Source of the DNA: Bdellovibrio sp. ZAP7
GTDB lineage: Bacteria; Bdellovibrionota; Bdellovibrionia; Bdellovibrionales; Bdellovibrionaceae
Length of the DNA stretch: 64,000 nt
Direction: 5' to 3'
Assembly (NCBI RefSeq): GCF_006874645.1
Contig: NZ_CP030082.1
Location: forward strand, 3,906,001-3,970,000
Every line of letters starts with the position of its first letter. Position 1 is the stretch's first letter. This document shows, piece by piece, positions 21,034-23,289 of this stretch. The translations under genes and the position numbers were made by a program. Below the pieces are notes generated by a model that was not told where the DNA came from, ran no database searches, and saw nothing but the letters and a program-made list of their open reading frames with translations.

Positions 21034-21185
21034 AAGATTTCCTCCAATCCCAAAATCCTACCACTCCCCCTAAACCAGAAAAGCAATAACACCCCACCCC
21101 TCCGAATCCATACAACGCACAACGTCGAAGACCAAAATCAACCATGAGGCCGGTCTATCCTCCAATTCTTACACCGAACTTCGAG

Positions 21186-21325
21186 CCATTGCGGAATTAT
21201 CCGAATGAAATCCTCTCACAAACGACCTCCGCGGGGTCTGGAAGACCCTCCCCAAAGGGGAAGCGGCAAGGGCAGGAAGCCCGGGTCGGTTGGGAGAGGA
21301 TTTCATTCGGATAATTCCGCAATGG
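21186..21325. repeat. 140-bp long inverted repeat with three internal hairpins (MITE-like or structured RNA)
   Basis: The outer arms are perfect over 32 bp: 21186-21217 (from CCATTGCGGAATTATCCG) and 21294-21325 (its exact reverse complement). Pairing continues to 21228/21283 with two mismatches and one G-T. The 54-nt apex contains three further hairpins: GGGTCT/AGACCC (21234-21239 with 21243-21248), CCCC/GGGG (21250-21253 with 21257-21260), and GGGC/GCCC (21270-21273 with 21279-21282). It lies immediately upstream of the SRP RNA gene and outside any convincing coding region. It may be a miniature inverted-repeat element or a folded transcript. No target-site duplication directly abuts the arms. 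Confidence 0.85.
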
Positions 21326-21349
21326 TACGACGAGTTATCGCATGTAACA

Positions 21350-21475
21350 GAGACCCCAGTAGGATAGACCAATCCATGGCCGGGTCCCATGCAATGGTTC
21401 CCTTGACGAATCCCGCTAGGTCCGGAAGGAAGCAACGGCACTCGAGGGGCTATGTGATATGGGGTGCTCGGCCAC
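21350..21475 (+). ncRNA. ffs: Signal recognition particle RNA (4.5S type)
   Basis: The universally conserved Ffh-binding domain is present: CCGCTAGGTCCGGAAGGAAGC (21413 onward, interrupted here for length) followed by AACGG. The terminal helix pairs CCCC at 21354-21357 with GGGG at 21461-21464, with further pairing of ATAG 21364-21367 to CTAT 21450-21453. A T-run begins at 21476. The size (about 120 nt) matches the small bacterial SRP RNA without an Alu domain. Its position directly upstream of dnaX is common in proteobacteria. The exact ends are approximate because the TSS cannot be read from sequence. Confidence 0.92.
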
Positions 21476-21504
21476 TTTTTTGTTTAAGCAGTTCGGAGAA
21501 TGTT

Positions 21505-23289
21505 TTGTCTTATCAGGTGATTGCACGCAAATGGCGTCCCCAATCTTTCACTGACGTTGTCGGACAGAATCATATTACCCAAACGCTGGCGAACGCGCTT
21601 AAAAACAACCGTCTGCCTCACGCACTTCTTTTCACAGGTCCTCGTGGTACTGGTAAAACTTCATCCGCTCGTATTTTGGCCAAAGCTTTGCGCTGTCCAA
21701 ATGCGGTGAACTTTGTTCCGTGTAACGAGTGTGACTCTTGCCGTGAGATCGCAGCCGGTAACAGCGTCGACGTTATGGAAATCGACGGAGCTTCTAACAA
21801 TGGTGTCGATTCCATTCGTGAACTTCGTGAGACCGTGGCGTTCATGCCAACCAGCGGAAAATACAAAGTTTACATCATCGACGAAGTTCACATGCTTTCG
21901 ACAAGTGCCTTCAACGCCCTTCTGAAAACTTTGGAAGAGCCGCCAGGTCACGTGATCTTCATCATGGCAACAACTGAGGTCCACAAAATCCCGCAAACGA
22001 TTTTGTCTCGTTGCCAACGTTTCGATTTCCGCAGAATCACCACTCGTCAAATCACCGAGCGCTTGAAACTGATCTGTGATCAGGAAGGCGTACAAGCTGA
22101 AGAGGAAGCTCTTTGGGTTATCGCCCGTCAAGGTGACGGTTCAATGCGTGACTCGCAAAGTTTGCTGGATCAAGTAATCACTTTCGCCAATGGTCCTTTG
22201 ACTCGCACGAATGTTGTCGAGATTTTGGGCCTTACTGATCGCGCGTTGTTGTTTGAAACACTGACGGCGTTGGTGGAGCGTAACACTCTTGATATTTTGA
22301 AAGTGATCGAGAAAATTTCCACGGCGGGCTTTGAGCCGCACTTATTCTCTCAAGACTTGTTGGAAATGATCCGCAACCTGCTTTTGGTTAAAGTCTCTGA
22401 AACTCAAGCTGCACAAATTCTGGAAATGCCTGACACTGAATTGCAGGCTTTGAATGATTTGTCTCAACGCTTGTCCGAAGAAGACATTCACATGCTCTTC
22501 GACATGGCGTTGAAAGGTGGCAGTGATATTCCGCGCGCTCAAGATCCTCGTATTGTGCTTGAGGTGATTTTGCTTCGCATGGCGTCTGCGCCGAAACTTG
22601 CGGACCTTAAAACTTTATTGGCGAATGGTCCCCAAGCTTCTCACAGCGCAGGTGGGGCCAGGCCCTACGTTCCGCCGGTAGCTCCACCCGTTCCAGGCCA
22701 CCAGCGACTGAAAGAATCCCAATCCGTTCCTGAAGTTCCGTCAGGTTTGGAAAAAATGAAGGCGACTTTCGAGCAGCCTGCAAAGAAAACTACTGATAAC
22801 AAACCAGCAACACCGGCACCTGCTCCCGTTGAGGAAGCAAAACCCGAAGCTCCAAAACTTGCTACGGGTGCGAACGCACAAGAACGTTGGATGAGTTTTG
22901 TTGAGTTGCTGCGCCAGGATGACGCTTTGTTTGCGGCAAAAATTGAAAATCTTCTGTTCGTAAAAGAAGAAGGCAAACTTTTGACCCTGGGAGTTCCGAC
23001 CAAGTTGGTGTTCCTGAAAGATCAAATGGCCGATACTCAGGTGCGTAAAAAGCTTCAAGGATTTATTGATTCGTACTGGGGCGCTGGGTATTCTTTTGAA
23101 GTATTGATGAAGGGTGATCAAACCGGCGAATCGGCTCAGGCTCTGCAACAGAAAAAAGTGCAGTTGGCTGAAGATGAAATCCGCAACAAGATCACTAACA
23201 ACCCGATGGTTAAAGCAGCCCAGGAAGCATTCCAGGGTCAGATTAAAAACATCGTAGAACTAAAGCGCGACAACGCGCCTAAAAAGTAA
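21505..23289 (+). CDS. dnaX: DNA polymerase III subunits gamma/tau
   Basis: 594 aa from TTG 21505, set by the conserved N-terminus SYQVIARKWRPQSFTDVVGQ and GGAG 6 nt upstream; the open frame continues upstream through the ffs gene but that part is not protein. Seen motifs: Walker A GPRGTGKTSSARIL, the zinc module CPNAV/CNECDSC, Walker B IIDEVHMLS, and the sensor region ILSRCQRFDFRR. After about residue 370 a Pro/Ala-rich linker (PPVAPPVPG, PATPAPAPVEEAKPEAPK) leads to a tau-like C-terminal domain. DnaX is the clamp-loader ATPase that organises the replisome. It heads an operon with ybaB, recR and mglA. No obvious frameshift slippery site for a separate gamma form was noted. Confidence 0.96.
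   Translation: MSYQVIARKWRPQSFTDVVGQNHITQTLANALKNNRLPHALLFTGPRGTGKTSSARILAKALRCPNAVNFVPCNECDSCREIAAGNSVDVMEIDGASNNGVDSIRELRETVAFMPTSGKYKVYIIDEVHMLSTSAFNALLKTLEEPPGHVIFIMATTEVHKIPQTILSRCQRFDFRRITTRQITERLKLICDQEGVQAEEEALWVIARQGDGSMRDSQSLLDQVITFANGPLTRTNVVEILGLTDRALLFETLTALVERNTLDILKVIEKISTAGFEPHLFSQDLLEMIRNLLLVKVSETQAAQILEMPDTELQALNDLSQRLSEEDIHMLFDMALKGGSDIPRAQDPRIVLEVILLRMASAPKLADLKTLLANGPQASHSAGGARPYVPPVAPPVPGHQRLKESQSVPEVPSGLEKMKATFEQPAKKTTDNKPATPAPAPVEEAKPEAPKLATGANAQERWMSFVELLRQDDALFAAKIENLLFVKEEGKLLTLGVPTKLVFLKDQMADTQVRKKLQGFIDSYWGAGYSFEVLMKGDQTGESAQALQQKKVQLAEDEIRNKITNNPMVKAAQEAFQGQIKNIVELKRDNAPKK

What the first reader, a model, noticed from the sequence alone, without database searches (positions are those of the whole stretch)
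21186..21325. 140-bp perfect-arm inverted repeat with three apical hairpins, next to SRP RNA
The outer 32 bp pair perfectly and pairing runs on to 43 positions, then three GC-rich hairpins fill the apex. No coding frame explains it. It ends 25 bp before the ffs gene, so the ffs promoter lies at or partly inside the repeat. It could be a miniature transposon that has shaped ffs transcription, or an unknown folded RNA.
Basis: seen in the sequence. Interest (0 to 1): 0.7.

Follow-up and report, generated by a model that had tools for sequence, protein, structure and literature searches.

The report
Bdellovibrio hairpin family with changing arms
The odd palindrome next to the SRP RNA gene is one of about thirty scattered copies of an undescribed hairpin element in this Bdellovibrio genome, in which the tip is conserved while the long stem changes sequence freely but stays paired.

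Summary
In detail: 32 bp perfect arms, three small hairpins at the apex, z = -13.5. It is neither a single-copy RNA nor a chance relic. The apex (about 68 nt, 21222-21289) recurs in 23 of 24 Bdellovibrio genomes, with 33 copies in this one, and in 44 of 143 genomes of the class. It is essentially absent elsewhere in the phylum.

The apex is conserved and covaries strongly. The arms are locus-specific: each copy's arms pair with each other (61 of 61 and 50 of 55 copies above the control) but not with other copies' arms. Between orthologues the arms diverge at least as fast as the flanks, yet 37 pairs changed on both sides and stayed Watson-Crick, against 8.4 both-changed pairs expected. G.T mismatches exceed A.C 112 to 27 on one strand, so that strand's fold is what is kept.

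At least some arms arose as inverted copies of flanking DNA. The element is not in Rfam, does not adjoin RAYT transposases, and I found no paper on it. Best reading: a dispersed, strand-specific hairpin element whose arms are made and re-matched by template switching. RNA function is the main rival. The effect on ffs is untested.

The parts
21186..21217 (+). left arm, 32 bp perfectly complementary to 21294-21325; locus-specific sequence
21294..21325 (+). right arm, perfect complement of the left arm
21222..21289 (+). conserved apex (core), the part shared by all copies; only match in the window (85.5 bits with model R2)
21223..21228 (+). stem P1, 5' side (pairs with 21283-21288)
21283..21288 (+). 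stem P1, 3' side
21229..21232 (+). stem P2, 5' side (pairs with 21263-21266); carries hairpins H1 and H2
21263..21266 (+). stem P2, 3' side
21234..21248 (+). hairpin H1, loop with GGA (GGA, CGA or TGA in other copies)
21249..21261 (+). hairpin H2, variable stem and length
21270..21282 (+). hairpin H3, loop AGGAA (GGA, sometimes CGA, in other copies)
21326..21377 (+). block between element and SRP RNA; its GAGTTATCG-like part is conserved also in genomes without the element, probably ffs upstream signal (inferred)
21378..21476 (+). SRP RNA gene ffs (neighbour, not part of the element)
   Evidence: RF00169 56.0 bits, gathering 40

Best explanation
A dispersed hairpin element family of the Bdellovibrionia. 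The inherited unit is a 60-75 nt apex of three hairpins. The apex sits at the tip of a 30-80 bp palindrome whose arms come from DNA of the insertion site. Shown: multi-copy distribution, conserved apex, locus-specific arms, coordinated change of the two arms, strand asymmetry, and (one locus by score, one by eye) inverted-duplication origin of the arms. Inferred: arms are created when synthesis snaps back at the apex and copies its own flank, and are re-matched by the same template switching. Inferred: the folded '+' (core) strand, as single-stranded DNA or RNA, is what a still unknown protein recognises. Spread is probably rare, since many sites are shared between species.
For: Copies: 33 in this genome, 35 in G015, 23 of 24 genus genomes; 44 of 143 in the class. 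The ffs site is occupied in some species and empty in others. Paralogous copies share only about 75 bp. Arms: own-arm score median 54 against 12 for swapped arms, 61 of 61 copies above the 95% null; in 55 usable new copies, median 48 against 12, 50 of 55 above. Orthologues: of 550 Watson-Crick arm pairs, 37 changed on both sides and stayed Watson-Crick (19 transitions, 18 transversions), against 8.4 both-changed expected; divergence equals or exceeds the flanks (arms 87.5%, flanks 90.9% identical). The spectrum of doubles equals that of singles (20 ts, 22 tv), as one-step copying predicts. A matched 1-nt difference is seen in both arms of L003 and L013 (sequences). Inverted duplication: the L084 right arm matches the rplL-side flank of its orthologues in inverted form (31 and 37; null 99% 28 and 30) and not their right flank (22 and 23; null 99% 30 and 33); the ffs left flank is, by eye, a decayed inverted copy of the right flank. 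Strand: G.T 112, A.C 27 over 115 copies; 53 copies against 8.
Against: No transposase or partner protein found. No consistent target duplication seen by eye. Template switching alone does not explain why G.T exceeds A.C, so selection on the core-strand fold is also needed. The L084 inverted-copy scores only just exceed the null. Orthologous pairs share genomes, so counts are not independent events. Some mismatches persist uncorrected (L056).
Confidence: 0.5

Rival explanations
1. A structured RNA family read from the core strand: the long stem is kept paired by selection and the apex presents two similar loops to a dimeric RNA-binding protein, for example CsrA, as a sponge or 3'-end element.
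For: G.T over A.C on the core strand. Two loops often with GGA: GGA in both loops in 42 of 112 distinct cores. CsrA present in 24 of 24 genus genomes. Weak Rfam matches to the CsrA-sponge clan CL00106 all fall on the core strand: TwoAYGGAY in L012 (33.6 bits), L179 and L183, and PrrB_RsmZ in L180. Strong covariation.
Against: All those Rfam matches are below gathering (43, 44). CGA or TGA replaces GGA in many loops, and both loops carry CGA in 5 of 112. No conserved promoter block 5' of the apex at prp or ffs, none by consensus scan. The core strand is antisense to the gene whose 3' end it abuts in 56 of 87 called cases. None of the HD100-sized genome's copies coincides with the 8 attack-phase sRNAs of PMC3627812 Table 2.
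Confidence: 0.3
2. A 3'-end processing or termination hairpin of the neighbouring gene, working in that gene's mRNA (anti-core strand).
For: Copies abut gene 3' ends, including prpD, gltA, rplL, rpsG and tig as judged from translations. In G012 the prpD site without the element carries a plain hairpin plus T-run. Some copies end in a T-run on that strand.
Against: On that strand the tolerated mismatches would be A.C, not G.U (112 against 27). T-runs of 4 or more near the stem end in only 10 of 114 copies against 3 of 114 on the other strand. The ffs copy lies upstream of ffs and of a divergent gene, 3' of neither.
Confidence: 0.12
3. Non-autonomous REP/REPIN-type repeat moved by the resident RAYT (Y1) transposases.
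For: Y1_Tnp genes in 21 of 24 genus genomes, 10 in this one. Dispersed intergenic palindromes.
Against: No apex within 1 kb of any of 20 RAYT regions examined; the 2 hits are known copies about 1.8 and 6.5 kb away in regions that I had extended to reach them. The repeats flanking these RAYTs are a different sequence, GGGGTATCGGTCA. RAYT counts do not follow element counts: G002, G012 and G014 have elements and no RAYT match.
Confidence: 0.06

Closest known systems
REP / REPIN / BIME repeats with RAYT transposases
   Same: dispersed, intergenic, often 3' of genes, hairpin-forming, tens of copies
   Different: REPs are short (20-40 bp, PMC3733652, abstract in search listing) with conserved stems; here the stem is locus-specific and only a larger three-hairpin apex is conserved; no RAYT adjacency
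Bacterial MITEs (e.g. Correia/NEMIS type, recalled)
   Same: miniature, non-coding, palindromic, multi-copy, presence/absence at a site
   Different: MITEs share terminal inverted repeats between copies; here the outer parts differ between copies and the centre is shared; no target duplication recognised
TwoAYGGAY RNA (RF01731) and the CsrA-sponge clan CL00106
   Same: two hairpins with GGA loops on a longer, poorly conserved outer stem (PMC4333381, passages read)
   Different: scores below gathering (33.6, 29.0, 28.3 against 43), a third hairpin, GGA not obligatory, tens of copies per genome, no known promoter
Quasi-palindrome correction by replication template switching (recalled)
   Same: explains how two arms change together in one step and become perfect palindromes
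   Different: known as a mutational hotspot at existing sequences, not as the maintenance mode of a repeat family with a conserved apex

Membership tests
REP/RAYT repeats | repeat flanks RAYT genes | tested here: not met
   0 of 20 RAYT regions with the apex within 1 kb; RAYT-flanking repeats differ
REP/RAYT repeats | conserved tag next to the stem | not tested
   no systematic scan for GTAG or CGTC tags was made
MITE | many dispersed copies | tested here: met
   33 copies in G000
MITE | terminal inverted repeats shared between copies | tested here: not met
   swapped arms score 12 against 54 own; paralogues similar over about 75 bp only
MITE | target-site duplication | tested here: inconclusive
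   no consistent duplication by eye in five G013 copies; no clean filled/empty pair aligned
TwoAYGGAY / CsrA sponge clan | covariance score at or above gathering | tested here: not met
   best 33.6 bits against 43; PrrB_RsmZ 21.7 against 44
TwoAYGGAY / CsrA sponge clan | GGA in both terminal loops | tested here: not met
   42 of 112 distinct cores; the window copy itself has GGA in both
TwoAYGGAY / CsrA sponge clan | binds CsrA | not testable with these tools
   CsrA gene present in 24 of 24 but binding unknown
structured RNA (any) | covarying base pairs | tested here: met
   325 both-sided cells against 99.5 shuffled; the alignment was fitted to the structure; arms, not in the model, show it too
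structured RNA (any) | is transcribed | tested here: inconclusive
   no conserved promoter; not among 8 published attack-phase sRNAs; no RNA-seq at hand

The most novel reading that the evidence does not exclude
A new kind of genetic element in which two layers are inherited differently: the apex by sequence, the long stem only by pairing. The stem is built from host DNA at each site by snap-back synthesis and is continuously rewritten by template switching, while a protein recognises the folded core strand. Such elements sit at key loci (SRP RNA, rplL-rpoB, rpsG-fusA) across predatory bacteria.
Probability: 0.4. Interest if true: 0.85.

Novelty: new variant of a known kind. Interest (0 to 1): 0.68.

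Why it matters
It gives a natural record, with dozens of loci and many species, of how long perfect palindromes are born and kept in bacterial chromosomes. It offers a way to separate two processes normally confounded: selection for a fold (strand-asymmetric G.T tolerance) and templated co-conversion of arms (double changes with a 1:1 transition to transversion ratio). If the apex binds a protein, it would be a shared signal at ends of housekeeping genes in Bdellovibrio, whose reported small RNAs are few. It is also a practical warning: such palindromes probably break assemblies (runs of N exactly at the apex in G003 and G006) and are nearly invisible to BLASTN.

Tried and rejected
Rfam membership: only tRNA and SRP reached gathering in the window; eukaryotic miRNA families matched weakly as any long hairpin would. 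RAYT/REP: rejected. Orientation by replication: 29 with and 28 against the fork over six genomes, assuming the origin at the contig start. An earlier count included G011, whose contig start is probably not the origin (ffs in mid-contig), so I set that row aside. G.T excess as a replication-strand mutation bias: rejected, it holds in both orientations (27:10 and 32:2). G.T excess as transcription-coupled deamination on the neighbour's coding strand: would give the opposite sign (reasoning). First mismatch counts with 90- and 70-base flanks (G.T 87 and 118, A.C 68 and 97) were diluted by gapped noise outside the arms; the 40-base count replaced them. This was a choice made after seeing the first result; the 55 usable new copies test it afresh. 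Conserved promoter 5' of the apex: none. Plasmid collection: no match. Intact single-copy ncRNA: rejected by copy number. Papers: searches found nothing on this element (titles and abstracts in search listings only; passages read in PMC3627812, PMC2864571, PMC4333381).

Limits: gene orientation rests on crude ORF calls, several of them spurious; 106 copies examined, 87 with a called downstream gene. Copy counts depend on rough E-values; the copies were not all inspected (one search took 50 loci, 58 matches, of which 55 entered the arm test). Orthologous pairs: 20 (L063-L094 dropped as a near-duplicate).

Full report
What is there. Window 21186-21325 is a 140-nt inverted repeat with 32 bp perfect outer arms, folding at -95.8 kcal/mol (z -13.5). 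The apex (21222-21289) consists of stem P1, then stem P2 carrying hairpins H1 and H2, then hairpin H3. The SRP RNA gene starts 52 bp further on by its Rfam match (21378), followed by dnaX. The genome is one contig of 4.12 Mb.

A family, not a single copy. BLASTN of the 140 bp found one further partial copy in this genome, between prpD and prpB, and copies in 9 of 24 genus genomes, matching the apex only except in the close relative G015. Aligning 13 apices gave 11 of 26 pairs changed on both sides and a covariance model, R1. With R1, and with R2 rebuilt from 61 copies, the family became visible: 23 of 24 genus genomes, 33 copies in this genome and 35 in G015 (E up to 0.1); 44 of 143 class genomes in 21 of 68 genera, 12 of them outside the family (E up to 0.001); 45 of 368 in the phylum, with only 3 weak genomes outside the class. 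In the window itself there is one copy. E-values are rough because calibration was short.

The apex. Over 58 distinct sequences, 22 of 26 pairs show both-sided change, covariation score 0.411 against 0.118 shuffled. Over 55 further distinct ones the score is 0.566 against 0.132, with 325 both-sided cells against 99.5. These alignments were fitted to the model, which leans towards it; the slid-partner controls fall to 0.02-0.06. Loops of H1 and H3 carry GGA most often, with CGA or TGA as alternatives; GGA is in both loops in 42 of 112 distinct cores folded singly.

The arms. They are not part of any model. In the 61 copies of A3, each copy's own arms score a median 54 against 12 when arms are swapped between copies, 61 of 61 above the null 95%. 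In 55 usable new copies, many outside the genus, 50 of 55 are above (median 48 against 12). Arms reach 80 bp perfect (L165). Paralogous copies in related genomes can have near-identical apices (98.6% over 74 bp, L177 and L186, two different loci) and unrelated arms. At ffs the outer arm (CCATAGAGG-like) is shared by many species while the middle 20 bp differ nearly completely and still pair.

How the arms evolve. In 20 orthologous pairs the apex is 94.7%, the arms 87.5% and the flanks 90.9% identical. Of 550 arm pairs that are Watson-Crick in one species (19 pairs of loci), the left side changed in 72 and the right in 64; independence predicts 8.4 both-changed, but 37 changed on both sides and stayed Watson-Crick. 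Half of these are transversions (18 of 37), like the one-sided changes (22 of 42). Stepwise change through a wobble pair would favour transitions; copying one arm from the other would not. This is suggestive, not proof, and the pairs share genomes.

Where the arms come from. In G023 (L084, rplL-rpoB) the left flank matches its orthologues (84 and 79; null 99% 26 and 28). The right arm matches the same left flank in inverted form, only just above the null (31 and 37 against 28 and 30), and does not match the orthologous right flanks (22 and 23, inside the null). At ffs, the DNA left of the element reads by eye as a decayed inverted copy of the right flank, including the conserved GAGTTATCG block. 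So at these two loci the palindrome looks like an inverted duplication of local DNA.

Which strand. On the strand read here (the + strand in the window) the arms hold 112 G.T but 27 A.C mismatches over 115 copies; 53 copies have more G.T, 8 more A.C. The excess was seen first in 61 copies (65:13), then in the new ones (47:14), and holds for both orientations to the fork (27:10 and 32:2). An earlier count with longer flanks was noisier (118:97 within 70 bases). The core strand's own fold is therefore probably under selection. Both RNA and single-stranded DNA tolerate G.T or G.U better than A.C, so this does not separate them.

Context. With crude ORF calls, the gene 3' of the core strand is antisense in 56 of 87 cases, its 3' end mostly about 40-80 nt from the apex. 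Neighbours, as I read the translations, include prpD, gltA, tig, rpsG/fusA, rplL/rpoB and ssb; inverted pairs of copies sit between convergent genes and between rplL and rpoB. In G012 the prpD site without the element carries a plain hairpin with a T-run. At ffs, of 23 genomes with the locus, 9 hold a clear copy, 5 a weak or decayed one (G001, G004, G007, G008, G010), 2 show arms around a run of N (G003, G006) and 7 none.

What it is not. It is not an Rfam family at gathering. It does not flank RAYT genes (0 of 20 within 1 kb), whose own repeats differ. It is not a classical MITE, because the shared part is the centre. It is not a CsrA-sponge member by score or by loop, though the weak matches to that clan (L012, L179, L183, L180) all fall on the core strand, which keeps the idea alive. 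PMC4333381 (passages read) proposes TwoAYGGAY as CsrA-binding. No copy in the HD100-sized genome G001 overlaps the eight attack-phase sRNAs of PMC3627812 (Table 2 read). Seven paper searches gave nothing on the element.

Verdict. A real, apparently undescribed, class-wide family. Main reading (0.5): a strand-specific hairpin element whose arms are generated and re-matched by template switching around a conserved apex recognised by an unknown protein. Main rival (0.3): a structured RNA. The link to ffs transcription is unproven.

Noticed in passing
window 21149-21164 and 21360-21369: A further outer inverted match (GGTCTATCC / GGATAGACC) lies outside the arms, the second half in the presumed ffs promoter; seen in this genome, not tested elsewhere.
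   Followed up: no
L200 (G021, prpD 3' side): At the prpD site of G021 a palindrome with about 26 bp perfect arms surrounds a different, longer apex that is not among the listed R2 matches: the same place, another core.
   Followed up: no
L129, L130 (G006, G003 ffs locus): Runs of N replace exactly the apex between perfect arms, probably assembly gaps caused by the hairpin.
   Followed up: no
L103-L122 (RAYT regions): Y1 transposase genes are abundant (10 in G000); those inspected are often flanked by GGGGTATCGGTCA repeats, a separate REP family.
   Followed up: partly
L168 (G087 contig C18), L152, L156, L170: Outside the genus, apices occur as closely spaced same-strand tandem copies (about 100-370 bp apart), some with poor arms.
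   Followed up: no
L080, L083, L084 (rplL-rpoB intergenic): An inverted pair of elements sits between rplL and rpoB, in L084 directly after what looks like the rplL terminator, where E. coli has an attenuator and an RNase III site (recalled).
   Followed up: partly
L180 169-274 (-), about 150 bp from an element copy: A match to the gammaproteobacterial rimP leader (RF01770) just above gathering (47.9 against 47) in a Bdellovibrio genome.
   Followed up: no
window 21205-23289: The mechanical dnaX ORF runs upstream through ffs and the element; the true dnaX start is probably near 21500, so automatic annotation could misplace it.
   Followed up: no
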